Of a stretch of 64,000 nt of DNA, positions 39,633 to 52,663 are shown piece by piece. The DNA is from Actinoalloteichus hoggarensis (GTDB lineage Bacteria > Actinomycetota > Actinomycetes > Mycobacteriales > Pseudonocardiaceae): positions 3,968,001 through 4,032,000 of the forward strand of contig NZ_CP022521.1 of the NCBI RefSeq assembly GCF_002234535.1, given 5' to 3'. The translations under genes were made by a program, and so were the position numbers. Each line of letters opens with the position of its first letter. The stretch's first letter is position 1. The notes under the pieces are model-generated. The model saw nothing but the letters and a program-made list of their open reading frames with translations, did not search any database and was not told the origin of the DNA.

Positions 39633-40027
39633 AGGGAACCACAGCCGTCACGGCGGCGTCGTCGACCGGACCGCAGCGAGACGACCGACGGCGCCGCTCG
39701 GCGGCATTCGACGCGCCGATTCACGACCCCGCGTCGAAAGGCGATCGACGAATCACACACCACGATGTCGAATCACATTTCGATACATAAGCGCGCCGAT
39801 AACGCCCCAGAAGAACCGTCGTCGAACGCTCGAGTTCGACGATGCGACACCATTGACAGGATTCTGGGGATATGTGAATCTCGGCAGCGGACCGGCGGTG
39901 CGAGTCGACCGAGGAGAAACGGCCCTGACCTGCGGCATGGCATCTCGAAATCCCGGCGAACATCGTTTCCTCGGGCCGAATGCGCCACCGCCGTCCGACC
40001 GACGTCAACTCGAGGAAGAGGTTCGAC
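39633..40027. other. 395-base promoter region of the GH74 gene
   Basis: AT-rich around 39750-39800 and 39850-39885. A TTGACA hexamer at 39853-39858 is a candidate -35; the following 15-20 bases have no strong -10. The palindrome at 39821-39840 may be an operator. A CGATACATAAG sequence at 39781-39791 may be another promoter element. Confidence 0.45.
39821..39840. promoter_or_regulatory. Palindrome upstream of GH74 gene
   Basis: GTCGAAC (39821-39827) and GTTCGAC (39834-39840) are perfect 7-bp inverted arms separated by GCTCGA, itself part of a CTCGAG palindrome. It lies 188 bases upstream of the GH74 start. Half-sites equal those of LexA, but the spacing of six instead of four argues for another regulator. 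Confidence 0.45.
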
Positions 40028-42655
40028 GTGACCGAGCGTAGATTCCTTTCCGCCCTGCTGGCCGCCGCGTTGGCCGCGGGCGCGCTGGCGCTCACCCAAG
40101 TGCCCACCGGCGGGTCCGAGGCGGCGGCACAGACCCTCGACGAGCCCTATTCGTGGCGCAACGTCGAGATCGCGGGCGGCGGGTTCGTCCCCGGCATCGT
40201 GTTCAACCAGACGGAGCCGGACCTGATCTACGCGCGCACCGACATCGGCGGGGCATACCGATGGGAGCCCGACAGCGGCCGATGGACCCCGCTGCTGGAC
40301 TGGGTCGGCTGGGACGAGTGGGGGTACAACGGCGTCGCCGGCCTGGCCACCGACCCCGTCGACCCGGACCGGGTGTACGTCGCGGCCGGCATGTACACCA
40401 ACGACTGGGACCCGAACAACGGCGCGATCCTGCGTTCCGCGGATCGCGGCGAGACCTGGGAGGTGACCGAGCTGCCCTTCAAGCTCGGCGGCAACATGCC
40501 CGGCCGCGGCATGGGAGAGCGGATCGCCGTCGACCCCAACGACAACAGCGTCGTCTACCTGGGCGCGCCCAGCGGCCACGGACTGTGGCGCAGCACCGAC
40601 TACGGCGTGACGTGGTCGGAGGTCTCGAACTTCCCCAACCCGGGGAACTACGCGGCGGACCCGGACGACCCGAACGGCTATCTGGACGACAATCAGGGCG
40701 TCACCTGGGTGGCCTTCGACGAGTCCTCCGGCAGCGCAGGCGACCCGACACCGGACGTCTACATCGGCGTGGCCGACAAGGAGAACACCGTCTACCGCAG
40801 CACCGACGCGGGGGCAGGCTGGGAGCGGATCGCGGGTCAGCCGACCGGATTCCTGGCGCACAAGGGCGTCGTCGACCACGTCAACGGACTCCTCTACATC
40901 GCGACCAGCGACACGGGCGGCCCGTATGACGGCGCCGAGGGCGACGTCTGGAAGTACGCGACCGACACCGGCGAGTGGACGCGGATCAGTCCCGTGCCCT
41001 CCGGGTCGGAGGGGGCCGACTTCGGGTACAGCGGGCTCACGATCGACCGGCAGAACCCGGACACCCTGATGGTCGCCACCCAGCTGCTCTGGTGGCCGGA
41101 CATCGTGATCTTCCGCAGCACCGACGCGGGCGAGACGTGGACGCGTGCCTGGGACTGGACGAACTATCCCGAGCGCTCCTTCCGCTATGAGATGGACATC
41201 TCCGAGGTGCCGTGGCTGGACTTCGCGACCGAGCCCGAGCCGCCGGAGGTCACCCCGAAGCTGGGGTGGATGACCGAGGCGCTGGAGATCGACCCGTTCG
41301 ACTCCGATCGGATGATGTACGGCACCGGGGCGACGATCTACGGCACCGAGAACCTCTCCGCCTGGGACGAGGGCGGCCGGATCACCATCGAGCCGATGGT
41401 CGGCGGGCTGGAGGAGACCGCGGTGCTCGACCTCGCCAGCCCGCCCAGCGGGGCGCCACTGCTCAGCGCGCTGGGCGACATCGCCGGATTCCGGCACGAC
41501 GACCTGGACACCGTGCCGACGCGGATGTTCTCCGCGCCGAACTTCACCAGCACCACCAGCCTCGACTTCGCCGAGACGAACCCGGACGTCGTGGTCCGCG
41601 CGGGCAACGCCGAGGGAGTCGCCCGCGCGGCGTTCTCCCAGGACGGCGGCGCGAACTGGTACCCGGCGAGCAGCGAGCCCGACGGCGTGACCGGCGGCGG
41701 AACCATCGCCTCGGCCGCCGACGGCGGCTCCGTGGTGTGGAGTCCGGCAGGCGCCGGCGTGCATCGCGCGGACATGGGCGGCAGCGCGTGGACGGCGTCC
41801 GCCGGCATCCCGGCGGGCGCGATCGTGGAGGCCGACCGGGTGAACCCCGAGGTGTTCTACGGGGCGAGCGGCGGCCGGTTCTACATCAGCACCGACGGCG
41901 GCGCGAGCTTCACCGCGAGCCCCGCGGCCGGGCTGCCGACCGGAAACGTGAAGTTCACGGCCCTGCCGGATCGCGAGGGCGAGATCTGGCTGGCGGGCGA
42001 CGGCGGGCTGGTGCGCTCCACCGACGGCGGGACCACGTTCACCGCGGTCGCCGGAGTGGACGGTGCGCGCAACATCGCGCACGGCGCGGCCGCGCCCGGT
42101 GTCGACCATCCCGCGCTCTACCTGGTCGGCACGGTCGACGGCGTCGAGGGCGTGTTCCGGTCCGACGACGCGGGAGCCGCCTGGGTTCGGATCAACGACG
42201 ACCAGCACCAGTGGGGCAACATGGGCGAGGCGCTCAGCGGCGACCCCCGGGTCTACGGCCGCGTCTATGTGGGCACGAACGGCCGCGGCATCCAGGTGGG
42301 CGAGTCGGCGGGCACCGAACCCCCCACGACGACTCCGCCGCCGACCGGCGACGGCTGCTCCGCGACCTACGCGGTCGCCCACTCCTGGGCGGGCGGCTTC
42401 CAGGCCGCGGTGACCGTCCGCAACACCGGTTCGACCGCGTTCGACGGCTGGTCGGTGTCGTGGACCTTCCCCGGCGCGCAGACCGTCGCGCAGGCGTGGA
42501 ACGGCGAGGCGACCCAGGCAGGCCGCGAGGTCACCGTCCGCAACGCCGGGTACAACGGCGTCGTCCCACCGGGCGGATCGGTGACGGTCGGCTTCAACGG
42601 CACCGGCTCGGGCCCGGACAGCACCCCGGCCCGGATCGACTGCACGGGCGGCTGA
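40028..42655 (+). CDS. Secreted xyloglucanase, GH74 with C-terminal CBM2
   Basis: An 875-residue extracellular enzyme. A signal peptide (RRFLSALLAAALAAGALALT) ends near SEAAAQ, residue 35. The two seven-bladed propellers of GH74 run to about residue 755 with repeated blade motifs such as RSADRGETWE, RSTDAGETWTRAWDW and RSTDGGTTF. The catalytic aspartates correspond to Asp72 (ARTDIGGAYRW) and Asp484 (SALGDIAGFRHDDL). A Thr/Pro linker (EPPTTTPPPTGDG) leads to a family 2 carbohydrate-binding module (about 773-873) with flanking cysteines and surface Trp residues for cellulose. GTG at 40028 follows GAAGAGGTTCGAC. Endo-cleaves xyloglucan, supplying oligosaccharides for import. Confidence 0.94.
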   Translation: MTERRFLSALLAAALAAGALALTQVPTGGSEAAAQTLDEPYSWRNVEIAGGGFVPGIVFNQTEPDLIYARTDIGGAYRWEPDSGRWTPLLDWVGWDEWGYNGVAGLATDPVDPDRVYVAAGMYTNDWDPNNGAILRSADRGETWEVTELPFKLGGNMPGRGMGERIAVDPNDNSVVYLGAPSGHGLWRSTDYGVTWSEVSNFPNPGNYAADPDDPNGYLDDNQGVTWVAFDESSGSAGDPTPDVYIGVADKENTVYRSTDAGAGWERIAGQPTGFLAHKGVVDHVNGLLYIATSDTGGPYDGAEGDVWKYATDTGEWTRISPVPSGSEGADFGYSGLTIDRQNPDTLMVATQLLWWPDIVIFRSTDAGETWTRAWDWTNYPERSFRYEMDISEVPWLDFATEPEPPEVTPKLGWMTEALEIDPFDSDRMMYGTGATIYGTENLSAWDEGGRITIEPMVGGLEETAVLDLASPPSGAPLLSALGDIAGFRHDDLDTVPTRMFSAPNFTSTTSLDFAETNPDVVVRAGNAEGVARAAFSQDGGANWYPASSEPDGVTGGGTIASAADGGSVVWSPAGAGVHRADMGGSAWTASAGIPAGAIVEADRVNPEVFYGASGGRFYISTDGGASFTASPAAGLPTGNVKFTALPDREGEIWLAGDGGLVRSTDGGTTFTAVAGVDGARNIAHGAAAPGVDHPALYLVGTVDGVEGVFRSDDAGAAWVRINDDQHQWGNMGEALSGDPRVYGRVYVGTNGRGIQVGESAGTEPPTTTPPPTGDGCSATYAVAHSWAGGFQAAVTVRNTGSTAFDGWSVSWTFPGAQTVAQAWNGEATQAGREVTVRNAGYNGVVPPGGSVTVGFNGTGSGPDSTPARIDCTGG

Positions 42656-42956: not shown

Positions 42957-43622
42957 ATGGACTTCCGCGATCTGGGCGACCGCCGATCCATTCAGCGCCC
43001 GTCGTTCGAACTCGCCGACCTCGATGAGAACGAATTCTCGTTCCAAGGAGAATTCGACGGCGACGAACTTCTCGTCGAATCCGGCGGTTTCTCCCACGCC
43101 AAGGGCGAGGGCACCCTCGCGCGGTCACTGGTACGTTCCGTCAACCTGTCAGAATCGCAGTTGTCGCCACTGGAACTGGCCGACGTCCGGTTCGAGGACG
43201 TCGACCTGTCAAACGCGTCATGGCAGCCCGTCACGATGCGCCGCACTGAGATCATTCGCAGCCGCACGATGGGCTTCCGACTTTTCCTGGAGTCAGCCAA
43301 AGACGTCTATATCGACGGTTGCCGCTGGGACTACTCCTCGATCCACATCGAAGGTGTCAAGGGTGCGCTGGTGTTCAATGACTGCATGTTCCGCGAGGCC
43401 GTCATCACCGGCGACCTGTCGAACGTGATGTTCCGTGACTGCGACCTAGGCGGCGTCGAGTTCGAGGCCGACAAGGCCGCGAACTGCGATCTGACGACGT
43501 CGCGGGTCTCCGACGTGGCCCGCGGACTGCTTGGCCTCCGAGGTGCCCGGATCACCGCAGAGCAAGCAGGCTCGGCGGCGATCCTGATCGCCGCCGAGGC
43601 CGGCCTCACTGTGAGCGACTAG
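42957..43622 (+). CDS. Pentapeptide-repeat-like protein beside RiPP genes
   Basis: A 221-residue soluble protein with degenerate pentapeptide repeats, A(D/N)LxF-like: FELADLDENEF, SVNLSESQL, PLELADVRFEDVDLSNASW, LVFNDCMFREAVITGDLSNV and MFRDCDLGGVEF, which should fold as a right-handed quadrilateral beta-helix. The C-terminal GLRGARITAEQAGSAAILIA is a capping helix common in actinobacterial members. Related proteins (Qnr, MfpA, McbG, AlbG) protect DNA gyrase from drugs or RiPP toxins, so an immunity role in the amc locus is a reasonable guess. It converges on the precursor gene, the two stop codons sharing CTAG. Codons are noticeably richer in A/T than in neighbouring genes. Confidence 0.75.
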   Translation: MDFRDLGDRRSIQRPSFELADLDENEFSFQGEFDGDELLVESGGFSHAKGEGTLARSLVRSVNLSESQLSPLELADVRFEDVDLSNASWQPVTMRRTEIIRSRTMGFRLFLESAKDVYIDGCRWDYSSIHIEGVKGALVFNDCMFREAVITGDLSNVMFRDCDLGGVEFEADKAANCDLTTSRVSDVARGLLGLRGARITAEQAGSAAILIAAEAGLTVSD

Positions 43623-43804
43623 CGCTTGTTCCAGTTGTCCCACGAGGGACGGTTATCGAAGCCGCCCCCCACGTTGTCCCACGAGTCGCGATTGTCCCAG
43701 GCGCCAGTCGCCGCCGGTTGCGGACGGAGACTCAGCAACACCCGCAATCCGGATTCGACTTCGCGTACACTACCTGACAGTTCGACTATTTCTCCGAGCT
43801 GCAT
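43619..43804 (-). CDS. amcA: RiPP precursor peptide with four W/F-Asp-Asn motifs (AmcA type)
   Basis: A 61-residue peptide. Residues 1-30 look like a leader (MQLGEIVELSGSVREVESGL, then RVLLSLRPQP). The core carries Trp36-Asp-Asn38, Trp42-Asp-Asn44, Phe49-Asp-Asn51 and Trp55-Asp-Asn57, ending WNKR. Aromatic-x-Asn triplets are the substrate of radical SAM three-residue cyclophane enzymes, which join the aromatic ring to the beta carbon of the third residue; four rings would be expected here. As I recall, the annotated name for this kind is multiple cyclophane-containing RiPP AmcA. AAGGGG lies 6 bases before the ATG, and the first 35 bases overlap the end of the maturase gene, so both come from one mRNA. 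Confidence 0.85.
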   Translation of the reverse strand: MQLGEIVELSGSVREVESGLRVLLSLRPQPAATGAWDNRDSWDNVGGGFDNRPSWDNWNKR

Positions 43805-44897
43805 CGAGAACCCCTTCGATCAATGCCATTCTGCCGTTTCGGCAGTAGTTGGTCTCCGTTCCATCAAATCGGCCGTGCTCGAAGTACTTGTTTGACGGTT
43901 GACCACCTCCACAGAAATCGAAAAATCGACAGGTCGAACGGCACCGATCGAGGCCGCGCCGATACTCGACGACCCATTCCGAGCTCATTCCGCGCTCGAT
44001 GATGGAATCGAGTCCGAGCGCTAGAACATTGCCACATTCGAACCGGTTGAACCGGTTGGACTTGAACCCGGCGAGTTCGGGCGAAATCAGGGTCACGGCA
44101 CCGTTCCATGCGACCGTCGGCAGCGGATCGATCGCAGCCGCACCGTAGGGCGCTCGGCCGTCGAGGACTTCGCTCGCATAGGAGAGCACCCGGTCGACGT
44201 CGCGCAACTCGATTCGGCAGTCGCTCGACCACGCCTCGGCAAGCGCCGACCAGAACGCCCGCACCTGGCCGGAGTCGTGCACGTTATTGCGGCTGTTGAC
44301 TCCCTCGCGTTCCTCGATGTTCACGCCCAGCCAACGGGCTCCCAGGTCAGCCGCCGCCGTGTACAACCGGCGTGCCCGCTCCGGCGTCGGATCGGACACG
44401 ACCGCGATCACCGACACGTCGTGTCCGTCGTCGACCAGGCGCCGAATGCCGCGCTCGATACGCGGGAACGCTGGACGGCCGGCGAGGTCGACGCGCGCGC
44501 CGTTGTCCTGCTCGACGCCGTCCACGCTCACGCCGACTCGCACACCCCGTTCGGCGAACCACGCCGACCAGGCCTCGTCGATCAACACCGCGTTGGTCTG
44601 CACGCTGTGCGAGACCTCGACATCGGCGAACTGGTCGAACAAGGCGCCGAGCCGTTCACGGCCGGCCGCCAGCGGTTCACCGCCGTGCCACACGATGTCG
44701 ACCGGACGTTCCGGCGTCCAGTTCCGAACCGACTCGGCAACCGCCCGCGCGACGGCTGGTGCCATCGGACGGTTGTCCTTGCGGTGCGGCAGGTAGCAGT
44801 ACCGGCAATCGAGGTTGCACAACGTCGTCGGCTGCATGATCACGCTGTCGGGTTCGGCGACGGGAATGATCTCGGACGCTCGGGCCTGTTCTGACAC
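43770..44897 (-). CDS. amcB: Radical SAM/SPASM cyclophane-forming maturase (AmcB type)
   Basis: A 375-residue enzyme. Residues 27-34 hold the radical SAM cluster motif CNLDCRYC (Cys27, Cys31, Cys34), followed by WHGGEPLAAGRERL (SAM contact) and QTNAVLIDEAWSAWF. The C-terminal SPASM region supplies further iron-sulphur ligands: RFECGNVLALG, RCRSTCRFFDFCGGGQPSNK and TETNYCRNG. The enzyme should reductively cleave S-adenosylmethionine and build carbon-carbon cyclophane links in the precursor encoded just downstream. GTG start at 44897 with GGAAGGACCACGCT upstream; the frame is open further upstream without support. Part of a minus-strand unit with the precursor and possibly the small membrane protein. 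Confidence 0.9.
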   Translation of the reverse strand: MSEQARASEIIPVAEPDSVIMQPTTLCNLDCRYCYLPHRKDNRPMAPAVARAVAESVRNWTPERPVDIVWHGGEPLAAGRERLGALFDQFADVEVSHSVQTNAVLIDEAWSAWFAERGVRVGVSVDGVEQDNGARVDLAGRPAFPRIERGIRRLVDDGHDVSVIAVVSDPTPERARRLYTAAADLGARWLGVNIEEREGVNSRNNVHDSGQVRAFWSALAEAWSSDCRIELRDVDRVLSYASEVLDGRAPYGAAAIDPLPTVAWNGAVTLISPELAGFKSNRFNRFECGNVLALGLDSIIERGMSSEWVVEYRRGLDRCRSTCRFFDFCGGGQPSNKYFEHGRFDGTETNYCRNGRMALIEGVLDAARRNSRTVR

Positions 44898-45003
44898 AGC
44901 GTGGTCCTTCCCTCGCAGTGGTCGAGTTGGATACGGCCCGGCCGAAGCGTCCGACTCGACACCTCGGCCAGACCGTGTGACTCGGTGCCGGTCGGGCGGC
45001 GAA

Positions 45004-45261
45004 TCACGCAAGCCGGGTTCTAGACCGCTTCACGCCCGCGAACACGCGATGCAACACAGAAGGTTGCGTGAGAACCCCATGCCAGACGGCGCAGTCCTGC
45101 CACAACGGTCGGTCTCCGGCGAGTCCACGGGGTGCCGCCTCCAGCCCGTTCGGCGCCCCCGGCTCGGTCTTGCGCCGCGATCGCTCGCGCCGTGTCCGCG
45201 CCTCGTCGACGTAGACGACTGACCCGCTGATCACGGCTAGCCCGAGGACGAAGACGGCCAC
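45004..45261 (-). CDS. Possible small membrane protein upstream of maturase
   Basis: An 85-codon frame beginning VAVFVLGLAVISGSVVYVDE, a single N-terminal membrane segment, followed by the basic run ARTRRERSRRK and a soluble tail. GTG start at 45261 with only a weak GGCGGCGGAC site upstream. It precedes the maturase by 107 bases on the same strand and could help in membrane attachment or export of the peptide, but may also be unrelated or noncoding. Confidence 0.4.
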   Translation of the reverse strand: MAVFVLGLAVISGSVVYVDEARTRRERSRRKTEPGAPNGLEAAPRGLAGDRPLWQDCAVWHGVLTQPSVLHRVFAGVKRSRTRLA

Positions 45262-45381
45262 CGCGACGTCCGCCGCCGTGCAGGATGCGCATCGTGGCCC
45301 TCCCTTCGGTTCTGGTCGACGCAGCCGCTTCGTCTGCTCTACGCAGCCATCACGTAACCGTGTGGAACCGTTGTGGGGGAC

Positions 45382-45404
45382 GGTGTGGGCGGAACTCCCA
45401 CACC
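45382..45404. promoter_or_regulatory. Inverted repeat upstream of XRE regulator in RiPP locus
   Basis: GGTGTGGG (45382-45389) and CCCACACC (45397-45404) are perfect 8-bp arms with 7 bases between, about 82 bases upstream of the XRE start and on the other side 121 bases upstream of the small membrane gene. Good candidate for the operator of the XRE protein. Confidence 0.6.
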
Positions 45405-45485
45405 TGGCCGTGTCCAGTCCTTCGTGCGGCCGGCTGCGCTGAGGCGCGTACCGGATACGTGCCGCGCACTCGACTGGAGACCTTC

Positions 45486-46931
45486 ATGGCCCGTACGCCA
45501 GAAGCGATCACAGAACTGCGCCGCGCCCTGGGGGCCGCGCTCCGCGGCTATCGGGAGACGTCACCGCTCGACCAGAGCGCCATCGGGCGGATCACCGCCT
45601 ACTCGCGAACATCGATCTCCCACATCGAGGCAGGCCGCCAGTTTCCCGGCCGCGACTTCTGGGAGACCACCGATCGAGTGCTCGACGCCGACGGCGATCT
45701 TCTCGCCCACTTCGACCGTGTGGTCGCGGACGAGAAGCGGATCAGGATCGCCGAGCTGCACGGCGCGCCGGTGCGAAGGAGTGACCCGGCGACACGATCA
45801 CCGCGGTCTCCCGGCTCGCCGCCCGACGACGATCGGCACCATGACGACGTGAATCGCCGTGAACTACTCCGCCTGGTGGCGGTCACGGGCAGTCTGCTCG
45901 CGATCCCCGCCATCGACGTCGACCGAGTCCGGCACGCCGCGGCGCACCCTCGCCACCTCGACCCCGCGACCGTGGACGTCTACGAGCGGCTCAACGCCGA
46001 GCTGTGGACACGATTCGCCGAGTCGCGGTCCAAACGTGATGTCCTGCCGGCCGCACGCCGGCAGCTCACCGCCGTGAACGCCAGTCTGAACGAGCCGCAG
46101 CCCGCCGACGTGCACCGCCGGTTGTGCGCGCTCGCCGGTGACCTGTTCCAGCTCTGCGGGGAGGTCCTCTTCGACAGCGACGACTACGCGGACGCCGCGC
46201 AGTGCTACGCCGAGGCCGCCCACGTCAGCAAGGAAGCACGCGAGTTCGACCTCTGGGCATGTGCGATGACCCGGCACGCCTTCATCAGCATCTACGATCG
46301 CCGATACACACACGCCGCCACGTTGCTCGACGGCGCCGCACAGCTCGCCGCGAGGGGCGACCCCACCCGGACTACTCGGCATTGGGTCGCGGCCGTCCAG
46401 GCGCAGACGTACGCCGGACTCGGGAACCTGCCCGCCTGCCAACGCGCGTTGGACAGGGCCGAGCAGGTCGCCGGCCTGCCGGACATGGCGCCCGCGACCG
46501 GTTGGCTCCGCTTCGAGGGGTCCCGGCTGGATGAGGAGCGCGCCTCATGTCTTGTCACGCTGCGCCGCCCGGACCTGGCCGAGCCCGCGCTGGACAAGGC
46601 CTTGGGGCAGGCCGCCTCGGCGCGACGTCGCGGTAGCGTGCTCGTCGACCTCGCGGCCGTCGGCGCCCAACGAGGCGACGTCGATCAACTGATCATGAGT
46701 GGCGCCGCGGCAGTGGACAGCGCCCGACAGACGGCATCGGCCGGCTACCTCGGCCGCAGGCTCCGAGATCTGCGCGAGCACCTGGTGCCGTTCCTCGGCG
46801 ACCGGCACGTGCGGTATCTGGATTCGCGGATCACAGACGTGGTGACCGTATTCGGCCCGAGACAGCAAGGAGAGAGTCAGTGTCGGACGAGCAGGGACGG
46901 ACCTTCCGGGATGCATGGATCGCCGGGGTGA
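45486..46931 (+). CDS. XRE-family regulator with TPR domain (RiPP locus)
   Basis: A 481-residue protein: helix-turn-helix at about residues 8-65 (ITELRRALGAALRGYRETSP, GRITAYSRTSISHIEAGRQF), a Pro/Asp linker, the segment VNRRELLRLVAVTGSLLAIP (about 120-139) and helical TPR-like repeats to the end (YADAAQCYAEAAHVSKEARE, YTHAATLLDGAAQLAARGDP). This architecture is common in actinomycete regulators of specialised peptides. ATG 45486 follows CTGGAGACCTTC. Divergent from the maturase side; its 3' end overlaps the next gene by 52 bases. Likely binds the inverted repeat at 45382-45404 and may sense a peptide. Confidence 0.82.
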   Translation: MARTPEAITELRRALGAALRGYRETSPLDQSAIGRITAYSRTSISHIEAGRQFPGRDFWETTDRVLDADGDLLAHFDRVVADEKRIRIAELHGAPVRRSDPATRSPRSPGSPPDDDRHHDDVNRRELLRLVAVTGSLLAIPAIDVDRVRHAAAHPRHLDPATVDVYERLNAELWTRFAESRSKRDVLPAARRQLTAVNASLNEPQPADVHRRLCALAGDLFQLCGEVLFDSDDYADAAQCYAEAAHVSKEAREFDLWACAMTRHAFISIYDRRYTHAATLLDGAAQLAARGDPTRTTRHWVAAVQAQTYAGLGNLPACQRALDRAEQVAGLPDMAPATGWLRFEGSRLDEERASCLVTLRRPDLAEPALDKALGQAASARRRGSVLVDLAAVGAQRGDVDQLIMSGAAAVDSARQTASAGYLGRRLRDLREHLVPFLGDRHVRYLDSRITDVVTVFGPRQQGESQCRTSRDGPSGMHGSPG

Positions 46932-47254
46932 ACAAGCACTACCCCGGCGAGCCGAAGCCCGGCTACATCGCCCCGTGGGCGGACACGCCCGATTGGGAGC
47001 GCGCCTGCGCGGCGGCCGTGTACCGGCAGGTGCACGACTTCATCGTCGCGACCGACGGCAGCACGGCCAAGCTCACTCGCGAGCAGAAGGGCCGGTTCGT
47101 CGCCCTGTGCTGGATCGGCCAGATTCACCGGCACTTCGCCGACCCCAGGCCCGCGTACGTCGCCGACTGGGCGGACATGCCCGAATGGCAGCGCGAGACC
47201 GATGCGGACATCTTCGAGCGCATCGAGAACGCGGTCGCGCCGCGCACGGCTTGA
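46880..47254 (+). CDS. Small protein with duplicated W-ADxPxW motif
   Basis: A 124-residue acidic protein built of two similar halves: HYPGEPKPGYIAPWADTPDW at residues about 20-39 and HFADPRPAYVADWADMPEWQ at about 84-103, each followed by a helix (ERACAAAVYRQVHDFIVATD; RETDADIFERIENAV). Between them lies LTREQKGRFVALCWIGQIHR. The shape resembles RyR-type repeat proteins found beside XRE regulators, function unknown. GTG at 46880 follows AAGGAGAGAGTCA and overlaps the XRE gene by 52 bases, so the two are co-translated. Confidence 0.75.
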   Translation: MSDEQGRTFRDAWIAGVNKHYPGEPKPGYIAPWADTPDWERACAAAVYRQVHDFIVATDGSTAKLTREQKGRFVALCWIGQIHRHFADPRPAYVADWADMPEWQRETDADIFERIENAVAPRTA

Positions 47255-47360: not shown

Positions 47361-48443
47361 TCACAGCAGGGAGAGCTGCCGCTCCCGATCTCGATCGGCG
47401 TCGGACCGCGGCGGATCATGCTGCCTCGTCCGAAAGTTCTCCGATCGACGCGGGTCCGCCAACCCATGACGACGCCTGGCCTGCTCGACGCGGTCGGCGA
47501 CTTCCCGCCGATAGGACTTCGGGGCGTACGCGCCGTCGCGGTACAGCCGCTCGTACAGCGGCAGCAGAGCGGGACGCTCGCGGCTGAGCCAGGCGTGATA
47601 CCACTCCCGCGCGCCCGGCCGCAGGTGAAGCACGACAGGTGTCAGGTTCACCGCCCCCGCCTCGGCGATCGCCGCCACCGTGCGATCGATCTCGGCAGGC
47701 GAGTCGCCGAGCCCCGGCAGGATCGGCGCCATCAGCACCGAACAGGCCACGCCTGCCTCGGCGAACCGGCGCACCACCTCCAATCGCCGCACCGGCGACG
47801 GCGCGCCCGGCTCGACGGCCCGCCACAGCCGCTCGTCGACCGAGCCCACCGAGAGCGCCACCGACACCGGCGCCACTCGCGCGGCCTGCACGATCAGGTC
47901 GAGGTCGCGCAGGATCAGCGTCCCCTTGGTCAGGATGGAGAACGGGTTGGCCCGGTCGCGTAGCGCCGCGATGATCTCCGGCATCAACCGGTAGCGCCCC
48001 TCCGCACGCTGGTAGGGGTCGGTGTTGGTGCCCATCGCGACGGGTTCGCCCGCCCAGCGTGGGCTCGCCAGCTCCTTGCGCAGCAACGTCGCGGCGTTGA
48101 CCTTCACGATGATCCTGGTGTCGAAGTCGCGGCCCGTGTCGAGGTCGAGGTAGGTGTGGGTGTTGCGTGCGAAGCAGTATCGACAGGCATGTCCGCAGCC
48201 CCGGTAGGGGTTGAGCGTCCACTCGAAGGGCATCCTCGATCCGCCCGGCACCCGATTGAGGATCGACTTCGCGGTGATCTCGATGGCCATCGCCTCGTCG
48301 TCGGTCCCCGCCTCGATCGGCACCGGGGGCGGCAGCCGCAGCCCGCCGCGACCGCCGCCGCGCACGATCCCGCCTCGTCCGGTCACCTCCAGCGGCAGCG
48401 CCTGTTCGCCACCCTCGTCCATGCGTTGCGCGTCCCACCTCAT
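47361..48443 (-). CDS. Rv2578c-family radical SAM protein
   Basis: A 360-residue enzyme with the cluster motif CGHACRYC (Cys83, Cys87, Cys90) within WTLNPYRGCGHACRYCFARN, then AMGTNTDPYQRAEGRYRLMP and SILTKGTLILRDLDLI typical of the DNA-photolyase-related (spore photoproduct lyase-like) radical SAM group. A His/Arg/Asp-rich tail ends the protein. The M. tuberculosis homologue Rv2578c is, to my knowledge, an SOS gene; here a nearly perfect SOS box (48453-48468) lies 10 bases upstream of the start, implying LexA repression and a DNA-damage role. The start at 48443 (MRWDAQRMDE) fits family length. Confidence 0.9.
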   Translation of the reverse strand: MRWDAQRMDEGGEQALPLEVTGRGGIVRGGGRGGLRLPPPVPIEAGTDDEAMAIEITAKSILNRVPGGSRMPFEWTLNPYRGCGHACRYCFARNTHTYLDLDTGRDFDTRIIVKVNAATLLRKELASPRWAGEPVAMGTNTDPYQRAEGRYRLMPEIIAALRDRANPFSILTKGTLILRDLDLIVQAARVAPVSVALSVGSVDERLWRAVEPGAPSPVRRLEVVRRFAEAGVACSVLMAPILPGLGDSPAEIDRTVAAIAEAGAVNLTPVVLHLRPGAREWYHAWLSRERPALLPLYERLYRDGAYAPKSYRREVADRVEQARRRHGLADPRRSENFRTRQHDPPRSDADRDRERQLSLL

Positions 48444-48452
48444 GCCGATGAT

Positions 48453-48468
48453 TCGATCATACGTTCGA
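48453..48468. promoter_or_regulatory. LexA SOS box
   Basis: TCGATCATACGTTCGA matches the actinobacterial SOS box TCGAAC-N4-GTTCGA at all but one of the 12 defined positions. It ends 25 bases and begins 10 bases upstream of the Rv2578c-type start codon, where it would cover the promoter. Confidence 0.8.
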
Positions 48469-48545
48469 ATATCTGTCCATCGCGGCGGCCGCCACCGCTC
48501 CCGACGACGACTCGCCAGGGCGAGCAGGGAGTAAAATAACGCTTT

Positions 48546-48557
48546 GCTTATATAAGC
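48546..48557. promoter_or_regulatory. Palindrome upstream of VOC-ArsR pair
   Basis: GCTTATATAAGC is a perfect 12-bp palindrome in an AT-rich stretch (48532-48560), 82 bases upstream of the VOC gene. It may contain the -10 element and be the operator of the ArsR-type regulator two genes on; ArsR sites are commonly of this AT-rich dyad kind. Confidence 0.5.
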
Positions 48558-48638
48558 TAGGGCTGTTACCTTCGAGGTGCACGCGAGCCACGCCCGCACC
48601 GCCCCCGAGCACCCGACCCGACACGGAACGAGACACGA

Positions 48639-51713: not shown

Positions 51714-52663
51714 TCATCCCGGAACGTCGTCCGGCGGGCGGCCCGCGCGGACCGCCCCGTATCGCCGGGCGGTGTCGCTGCTGCGGTGACCCATCAGTTC
51801 GGCGACCCGGTCGGGAGCCGAGCCGTTCGCGAGCAGGCGATGGCCGAAGGTCTGCCGCAGGACGTGCGGGGTGATCGGCTGCCCGGCGTCTGCCTCCAGG
51901 CCCGCGATGCCGCCGATCCGGACCACCAGCGTGTCCACCGAGCGGGTGGACAGTCGGCCGCCCCGCCGGTTGAGGAACAACGCGGGCGTCCGCTCGACGC
52001 CCGACCGGCCCCGACGAGTGGCGACCCAGTCACGCAGGACCAGCCGGGGCTCCTCCGACAAGGGGATCTCCCTCGGCTCGATGCCGCGCGCCGTGACCCG
52101 GATGTGCGCCTGTCGAACGCCGAGACGCACATCGTCGACGTCGAGCGCGACCGTTCGGTCACCCGGACCCCGGTGTGCAGCAGGGTGTGCACGACGGCGA
52201 TGTCTCGCGGCAGTCCGCCCGCCAGCACGGCCGCCACCAGCCTGCGGGTCTCGTCGACCTGCAGAGCCCTGGACTGCGGCGCCGTCTGTTCCTCCCGATC
52301 GATCGGGGCATGGCCGACCCGCAGGCAGTGATCGTAGAAGTGATCGAGCGCCGTGAGGACCGCGTTGATCGTGGCGGGTCTACTGCCCAGAGCGGTCTTC
52401 AACCACGAGCGGTAGGCACGCACGGCCGCGTCCCTGGCCGGTGGCTCGGTGAGCGGGTCCTCGGGGCCGCTGTCGTGCTCGACGAGCCAGGTGAGAAAGC
52501 CCGCAATCTGGAACCGATAGGCGCGGCGGGTCGGCGAGGCGAGGGTGGAGTTCGCGAGGGCGCGTTCGTAGCGGGTGAACACCCGATGTGCCCGCTGCGG
52601 GGCGACCCCGCTCACGGACTCCCCGGCGACCTCGCCCACGGGATCTCCGGCGACCTCGCCCAC
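51714..52663 (-). pseudogene. Tyrosine recombinase (XerC/D-like), frameshifted
   Basis: The N-terminal SAM-like core-binding domain (VFTRYERALANSTLASPTRR, YRFQIAGFLTWLVEH) and the catalytic domain up to HTLLHTGVRVTE (Arg of the first catalytic box) lie in one frame; the continuation VALDVDDVRLGVRQAHIRV, ITPHVLRQTFGHRLLANG (His-x-x-Arg), LMGHRSSDTARRYG (His and Tyr) lies in another. A loss of one base in the codon after VTE, near 52157, restores the reading. All five catalytic residues are therefore present but split. Probably a dead integrase, unless it is a sequencing error. Its N-terminus includes an 8-codon repeat (GEVAGDPV/GEVAGESV). Confidence 0.85.

What the first reader, a model, noticed from the sequence alone, without database searches (positions are those of the whole stretch)
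42957..47254. Cyclophane RiPP locus: precursor, radical SAM/SPASM maturase, regulator and possible immunity gene
A 61-residue peptide with four aromatic-Asp-Asn triplets lies directly downstream of, and overlaps, a radical SAM protein with CNLDCRYC and a cysteine-rich SPASM end. Known three-residue cyclophane enzymes act on such triplets. The pairing matches the AmcA/AmcB type as I recall it; the product, target and the role of the neighbouring genes appear undescribed.
Basis: partly seen in the sequence, partly recalled or inferred. Interest (0 to 1): 0.88.

Follow-up and report, generated by a model that had tools for sequence, protein, structure and literature searches.

The report
Cyclophane peptide locus with guardian protein
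An actinobacterium carries a small gene set for a ring-stapled peptide of a known kind, and the gene that always sits beside it looks like the one that shields the maker from its own peptide, which hints at what that peptide attacks.

Summary
The enzyme passes NCBI's curated AmcB model (450 bits, cut-off 425) and the 61-residue peptide passes AmcA_1 (65.9 bits, cut-off 40), so the locus is a member of a curated family. The new part is the pentapeptide-repeat protein (PRP) beside the peptide gene. Each AmcA_1 gene found (30 of 30 genomes) lies next to a PRP (two of these PRPs are broken); 0 of 18 AmcB loci without AmcA_1 have one in the stretch held. Gene order is tail-to-tail in Pseudonocardiaceae-type genomes, same-strand in another family. 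The dependence is one-sided: of 56 family genomes with this PRP, 24 keep AmcA, and amcB is often broken where the PRP is intact. That is how a self-protection gene behaves. By sequence profile and predicted fold the PRP is nearest to EfsQnr, with QnrB1, AlbG and MfpA in the same lists, although it fails the curated Qnr and MfpA cut-offs. Best reading: AmcB staples up to four Trp/Phe-Asp-Asn rings, and the PRP guards the maker's own target, possibly DNA gyrase (inferred). The regulator type varies between loci; the 124-aa gene was matched in one relative only.

The parts
43619..43804 (-). AmcA_1 precursor peptide, 61 aa; core GAWDNRDSWDNVGGGFDNRPSWDNWNKR
   Evidence: NF041721 65.9 bits, cut-off 40; core under purifying selection against relative L077, pS 0.69 and pN 0.015 over 28 codons
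43770..44897 (-). AmcB radical SAM/SPASM cyclophane maturase, about 375 aa from GTG 44897 (start chosen by eye from a GGAAGG site just upstream; searches used 43770-44879)
   Evidence: NF041718 450.1 bits, cut-off 425; next TIGR04261 GrrM/OscB 217 bits, cut-off 310; Radical_SAM 52 bits
42957..43622 (+). Pentapeptide-repeat protein, 221 aa, convergent with amcA, stop codons overlapping; proposed self-protection gene
   Evidence: PF13599 33.7 bits (cut-off 38) and PF13576 24.3 (cut-off 27), both just under; five relatives scanned all pass PF00805 and PF13599; beside AmcA_1 in 30 of 30; AF2 mean pLDDT 94.4
45486..46931 (+). Divergent HTH_31 / TPR-like regulator of the NsdA family, 481 aa
   Evidence: NF053720 155.2 bits, cut-off 75; PF13560 52.2 bits, cut-off 27
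46880..47254 (+). 124-aa gene overlapping the regulator's end; two similar halves by eye; no family
   Evidence: matched only in L060, 80% identity

Best explanation
amcB-amcA-prp is a three-gene unit. AmcB, a radical SAM/SPASM three-residue-cyclophane enzyme, joins the aromatic ring of each Trp/Phe to the beta carbon of the Asn two residues later in the four Trp/Phe-Asp-Asn triplets of AmcA, giving up to four rings (inferred from family membership). The stapled core is the active part; its sequence hardly changes while the leader drifts (shown on close relatives). The neighbouring pentapeptide-repeat protein is its dedicated self-protection gene (inferred from the one-sided dependence, which is shown). 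It would act like AlbG, Qnr or MfpA, a DNA-shaped dimer that keeps the peptide off the cell's own target; that target is most likely a type II topoisomerase (inferred, weakest step). A nearby XRE-type regulator, different from lineage to lineage, probably controls it. Export and leader removal are left to genes elsewhere, since I saw no transporter or protease at a fixed place beside the unit.
For: Curated models. PRP beside AmcA_1 in 30 of 30 genomes: 26 by tblastn, G014 on another contig, and G376, G020, G142. 0 of 18 AmcB loci without AmcA_1 have it in the stretch held (leaving out L061, whose AmcA and PRP lie on another contig). The window genome has only 2 PF13599 matches in 6.6 Mb, one being this PRP (other PRP models not counted). 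Gene order is convergent in 21 of 26 loci and same-strand in the 5 of f19. One-sidedness: 56 family genomes hold this PRP, 24 with AmcA, 3 more with amcB scraps, 2 beside another radical SAM gene, 27 alone; 23 of the 27 lone ones have an open frame of 200 aa or more. Of 27 AmcA_1 loci with AmcB, the 25 with an open amcB all have an unbroken PRP frame; broken amcB with intact PRP occurs in L077, L089, L114 and L125. A clade of 14 lone PRPs lies beside two PRPs still linked to amc in the same genus (joining fork 93/82). Nearest solved structures by profile: EfsQnr, 6fls, designed repeats, MfpA, QnrB1, AlbG; by fold EfsQnr first, TM 0.74/0.78, AlbG up to 0.63/0.70. C-terminal helix 201-214, as in the gyrase-acting PRP dimers of PMC8145042 (passages). 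Net charge negative in 26 of 26. Precedent: speirobactin, whose cluster holds a PRP and whose target is gyrase (PMC12406682, passages).
Against: The PRP fold serves many functions; this one falls far below the curated cut-offs (MfpA 22.9 of 360, Qnr 16.4 of 240). TM-scores to MfpA are low (0.24-0.54). 6fls, second nearest, has no confirmed function (PMC8145042). The f19 PRPs are only 23-31% identical to the window's, so they may be a separate recruitment, and they hit HetL about as well as Qnr. HetL shows that a PRP can guard a transcription factor against a peptide (PMC7476756). One AmcB of the AmcA_1 clade, L074, with an altered C-terminus, has neither AmcA_1 nor PRP in the stretch held, so amcB too can outlive the PRP. 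No exporter at a fixed place, odd for a secreted antibiotic. Lone PRPs could have a job of their own; 4 of the 27 are short or broken. Loci are related by descent, so counts are not independent events; some broken frames may be draft errors. In the PRP search only 7 candidates a genome were scored.
Confidence: 0.55

Rival explanations
1. The peptide is a signal, not an antibiotic. It binds a transcription regulator (such as the XRE/TPR protein next door), and the PRP competes for the same site, as HetL does against PatS on HetR in cyanobacteria.
For: HetL is a PRP that gives immunity against a peptide by binding its target HetR (PMC7476756, passages). HTH_31 was found in 17 of 28 ORFs, the nearest large ORF upstream of amcB in 27 loci (L058 gave two; picked from 58 candidates). 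In the window genome HTH_31 has 59 matches in 6.6 Mb (150 of 366 candidates scored, so a lower bound), so about 2% or somewhat more would be expected by chance within 2.5 kb. No fixed exporter. The core is conserved as a signal would be.
Against: The regulators are not one family, 2 of the 28 are GntR and 2 are methyltransferases. Lone PRPs persist without the peptide. By profile the PRP scores higher against Qnr-type structures (60-82 bits for EfsQnr, MfpA, QnrB1, AlbG) than against 3du1 (44 bits; that this entry is HetL is recalled).
Confidence: 0.2
2. The PRP is a maturation or carrier partner that AmcB or AmcA needs.
For: Always present with AmcA_1; distances of AmcB and PRP correlate (Mantel r 0.94 for 26 pairs, 0.86 for 20 family pairs, 0 of 5000 permutations as high), though descent alone gives this too.
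Against: 27 of 56 family genomes keep the PRP with no amc trace found within 6 kb, and intact PRPs outlive broken amcB.
Confidence: 0.08
3. The PRP has its own role inside the cell (for example tuning gyrase) and the peptide inhibits or titrates the PRP, a toxin-antitoxin-like or regulatory pair.
For: Lone PRPs in shared surroundings in genus g10; no fixed exporter; tail-to-tail genes that overlap in 9 of 19 f1 loci measured.
Against: 334 of 390 family genomes lack this PRP at the level used, so it is not housekeeping in general.
Confidence: 0.1

Closest known systems
AmcA/AmcB multiple-cyclophane RiPPs (NCBIfam NF041718, NF041721)
   Same: Both proteins pass the curated cut-offs; gene order amcB-amcA; four aromatic-Asp-Asn triplets.
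   Different: The PRP partner is not part of either model. Whether the family's own paper mentions it could not be checked.
Triceptides / three-residue cyclophane enzymes (GrrM/OscB, XncB, FxsB)
   Same: Second best model is GrrM/OscB (217 bits, below its cut-off of 310). OscB joins Trp C7 to Asn/Asp beta carbon, and XncB or OscB Phe C4 to Asn beta carbon (PMC11002830, passages).
   Different: AmcB is a curated family of its own; the product of this locus has not been made.
Qnr / MfpA / AlbG pentapeptide-repeat proteins
   Same: Nearest solved structures by profile and fold; C-terminal helix; acidic.
   Different: Far below the curated Qnr and MfpA cut-offs; tied to a ribosomal cyclophane peptide; no gyrase data.
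HetL (guards HetR from PatS peptide)
   Same: A PRP that gives immunity against a peptide.
   Different: Cyanobacterial; target a transcription factor; weak match (NF047416 16.6 bits, cut-off 260).

Membership tests
AmcB (NF041718, equivalog) | Score above curated cut-off 425 bits | tested here: met
   450.1 bits
AmcA_1 (NF041721, equivalog) | Score above curated cut-off 40 bits | tested here: met
   65.9 bits
Triceptides (three-residue cyclophanes) | Aromatic-X-X triplet substrate beside a radical SAM/SPASM enzyme | tested here: met
   Four WDN/FDN triplets; CX3CX2C invariant in 41 of 41
Triceptides (three-residue cyclophanes) | Ring carbon to beta carbon bond, minus 2 H per ring | not testable with these tools
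   Needs mass spectrometry and NMR
Qnr / MfpA gyrase-protecting proteins | Score above curated cut-offs (Qnr 240, MfpA 360) | tested here: not met
   16.4 and 22.9 bits; so it is not filed as Qnr or MfpA
[quoted passage not shown]
   Predicted beta solenoid and helix 201-214, EfsQnr TM 0.74/0.78; dimer not modelled
Qnr / MfpA gyrase-protecting proteins | Binds and protects DNA gyrase | not testable with these tools
   Needs supercoiling and cleavage assays
NsdA family regulators (NF053720) | Score above curated cut-off 75 bits | tested here: met
   155.2 bits; it is not NsdA itself (NF050130, 42.7 of 830)

The most novel reading that the evidence does not exclude
AmcA_1 peptides are ribosomal, radical-SAM-stapled inhibitors of DNA gyrase or topoisomerase IV, each made together with its own Qnr/AlbG-like guard. 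They would give triceptides a molecular target, and the 27 genomes that keep only the guard would be immune non-makers. In the related AmcA_4 type the guard seems to be replaced by a phosphotransferase-like protein, so the resistance-like partner would track the peptide type.
Probability: 0.3. Interest if true: 0.8.

Novelty: new member of a known kind. Interest (0 to 1): 0.55.

Why it matters
A 2025 paper states that the bioactivities of triceptides are not yet elucidated (PMC12257519, passage). A fixed partner that looks like a target-guard gives a concrete, cheap hypothesis for what one group of them does, and a list of makers, guard-only genomes and genomes without the guard on which to test it. 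In the speirobactin case a PRP in the cluster and gyrase as the target went together (PMC12406682, passages).

Tried and rejected
Defence system: PADLOC gave nothing for the PRP, only viperin hits (39 and 24.5 bits) for the radical SAM enzyme; rejected. Sulfatase maturase: rejected on scores. Plasmid carriage: no AmcB in the plasmid collection at E 1e-40. The NsdA-like regulator and 124-aa gene as core parts: rejected. A fixed transporter or protease: none seen in the 30 most widespread clusters of neighbouring ORFs (3 or more loci each, named by eye). A cluster that looks like an ABC-transporter ATPase does occur in 4 of 45 loci (L076, L079, L085, L065), at scattered places and on both strands, so it is not fixed. 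Genome-contig scan with AmcB gave no confirmed relative, with the PRP two, Saccharopolyspora spinosa and Halosaccharopolyspora lacisalsi, both Pseudonocardiaceae; their contig lengths equal those of G364 and G210. Literature: nine searches of ten allowed. No held paper has both 'pentapeptide repeat' and 'cyclophane'; the single paper with 'pentapeptide repeat', 'radical SAM' and 'precursor peptide' (PMC9231227) was seen in listings only. PMC7476756, PMC12406682, PMC11002830, PMC8145042, PMC12257519 and PMC10885120 were seen as passages. Phan and Morinaka 2022 was seen only as a reference; that it describes AmcB is recalled, not read.

Limits and rows dropped: the genome searches score only the best candidates of a first look (5 a genome as a rule, 4, 7, 150 of 366), so absences and counts there are bounds. 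In one search four short PRP pieces (L116, L119, L126, L127) were left out of the tree; L049 was left out, four of 45 AmcB. G742 counts as AmcA_1 at 25.1 bits and G020 at 28.4, both below the cut-off of 40. The A1 profile was built from the 26 PRPs it finds; what it tests is their absence elsewhere. The labels f1, f19, f20, g10 are the tool's; Pseudonocardiaceae for f1 is inferred.
Full report
What is there. On the minus strand a radical SAM/SPASM gene (43770 to about 44897) is followed by, and overlaps by 35 nt, a 61-aa peptide gene (43619-43804) with four aromatic-Asp-Asn triplets. The triplets are not chance: 0 of 100,000 shuffles, and no second place in the window with three such triplets close together. 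Facing them on the plus strand is a 221-aa pentapeptide-repeat protein (PRP, 42957-43622) whose stop codon overlaps that of the peptide gene by 4 nt. Divergently upstream lie an NsdA-family regulator (45486-46931) and an overlapping 124-aa gene (46880-47254).

Family. NCBIfam calls the enzyme AmcB (450.1 bits, cut-off 425) and the peptide AmcA_1 (65.9 bits, cut-off 40); the next enzyme family is GrrM/OscB at 217 bits, under its cut-off. NCBIfam also holds AmcA_3a, AmcA_3b and AmcA_4 models; of four peptides from relatives that I scanned, two pass AmcA_4, one passes AmcA_3a and one has no hit. The family and its subtypes are thus already curated, and filing the locus as a new member of a known kind is right.

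How common. With AmcB at E 1e-80 or better: 33 of 390 genomes in the family, 10 of 394 in a sample of the class (the window genome is in both; only the best candidates of each genome were scored). AmcA_1 peptides: 27 of 42 AmcB genomes at E 0.01, 24 of 390 family genomes at E 1e-4; together 30 genomes.

The partner. I fetched up to 8 kb on each side of 44 AmcB loci (less where contigs end) and clustered the ORFs with those of the window. Apart from AmcB and the ORFs opposite to it, the PRP is the most widespread neighbour, in 26 loci. A profile built from these 26 PRPs finds none in the ORFs of the other 19 loci; one of these, L061, has its AmcA and PRP on a second contig (L090), which leaves 0 of 18. 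Three further AmcA_1 genomes with broken amcB (G376, G020, G142) also have the PRP. So 30 of 30 AmcA_1 genes lie beside a PRP. In G020 and G142 the PRP is itself interrupted, and there amcB is broken too. The PRP is on the same strand as amcA in the five f19 loci and convergent in the other 21. Of 19 convergent f1 loci measured, 9 have overlapping stop codons and 10 have gaps of 0 to 15 nt; the f20 locus has 8 nt. The f19 PRPs are 23-31% identical to the window's; they pass Pfam pentapeptide models but may be a separate recruitment.

One-sided dependence. The same profile over 390 family genomes gives 55 genomes at 146 bits or more, then a gap to 113 bits, plus G013 with a PRP split over two frames: 56. 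Of these 24 have AmcA_1, 3 (G013, G195, G365) only amcB scraps, 2 (G211, G044) stand tail-to-tail with a different radical SAM protein, and 27 have no amc trace within 6 kb at E 0.01; 23 of these 27 have an open frame of 200 aa or more. Fourteen of the 27 form one clade in one genus, beside two amc-linked PRPs of that genus (fork 93/82), and 13 of the 14 share a neighbour gene (cluster c1). In the 25 AmcA_1 loci with an open amcB the PRP is never broken, while L077, L089, L114 and L125 have broken amcB and an intact PRP. A gene that the peptide never lacks but that readily outlives the peptide is what one expects of self-protection, and not of a maturation partner. Against this: L074, an AmcB of the same clade with an altered end, has neither AmcA_1 nor PRP, so amcB can also be the last to go. 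Caveats: shared descent, draft genomes, and a label tree with 20 of 54 inner branches open.

What the PRP resembles. AF2 gives a confident solenoid (pLDDT 94.4, pTM 0.90) with a C-terminal helix at 201-214. Against the PDB the profile ranks EfsQnr first (4e-22), then 6fls, a designed repeat, MfpA, QnrB1 and AlbG among others; Foldseek ranks EfsQnr first, with 6fls, designed repeats, QnrB1, AlbG, MfpA and AhQnr among the 39 matches at E 0.001. The review PMC8145042 (passages) describes head-to-head dimers through the C-terminal helix in MfpA, EfsQnr and AlbG, DNA mimicry, and AlbG as self-resistance to albicidin. Net charge is negative in 26 of 26 (-6 to -16, window -16). Against: curated Qnr and MfpA models reject it, 6fls has no proven function, f19 PRPs hit HetL about as well as Qnr, and HetL shows another way for a PRP to confer immunity against a peptide. 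The gyrase step is a lead, not a result.

The peptide. Between the window and relative L077 the 28-residue core has pS 0.69 and pN 0.015, while the last 60 codons compared have pN 0.14; the core, not the leader, is what selection keeps. In the 25 AmcA_1 peptides listed both halves usually keep the spacing aromatic-Asp-Asn-x-x-x-Trp-Asp-Asn, with exceptions such as FNN, WDD and FGN, and only two clear triplets in L079.

Regulation and export. Among 28 ORFs, the nearest large ORF upstream in 27 loci (two from L058), 17 have an HTH_31 domain and 15 HTH_3 (counts overlap), 2 GntR, 2 methyltransferase. HTH_31 has at least 59 matches in the 6.6-Mb window genome, so this is more than chance, but the regulators are not orthologues. 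I saw no exporter or protease at a fixed place in the clusters that I read; an ABC-ATPase-like cluster is in 4 of 45 loci at scattered places. This is the main gap in the antibiotic reading.

Novelty. Within the held papers I found nothing linking PRPs with cyclophane RiPPs, but key subscription papers are not held, so I do not claim that the link is unpublished.

Noticed in passing
L047-L053, L055, L057, L075, L088: These 11 AmcB loci without PRP share a gene directly downstream of the precursor region that looks phosphotransferase-like (cluster; the one member scanned, from L048, has APH 20.8 bits, cut-off 23.2). Two of their peptides (L052, L050) pass NF041724 AmcA_4, L057's has no hit. The resistance-like partner seems to track the peptide type.
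   Followed up: partly
L118, L120: The same PRP subfamily stands tail-to-tail with a different radical SAM protein that ends in a Cys-rich tail, in two genera; the L118 copy passes Radical_SAM and SPASM.
   Followed up: partly
L083, L084: AmcB loci without PRP in the stretch held; the peptide of L084 (...CAWNHFENIPTFYNWNNRPR) passes NF041722 AmcA_3a.
   Followed up: partly
L067, L077, L081, L089: Four AmcA_1 loci share a methyltransferase-like ORF cluster; the L089 copy, just upstream of amcB, is PCMT-like (PF01135, 82 bits). Such enzymes act on Asp, which the WDN triplets hold (recalled).
   Followed up: no
L114, L116, L119, L125, L128, L129: Decaying amc loci: amcB broken or reduced to scraps beside the PRP.
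   Followed up: partly
window 39980-42655 +: 891-aa protein with BNR/Vps10-type repeats and a C-terminal CBM2 cellulose-binding domain.
   Followed up: no
window 47361-48599 -: Second radical SAM protein, Rv2578c family (476.7 bits, cut-off 430).
   Followed up: no
window 45004-45261 -: Small ORF between amcB and the regulator whose first residues look like one membrane span (by eye).
   Followed up: no
window 51714-52663 -: Pieces of a tyrosine-recombinase-like gene in two overlapping frames (by eye).
   Followed up: no
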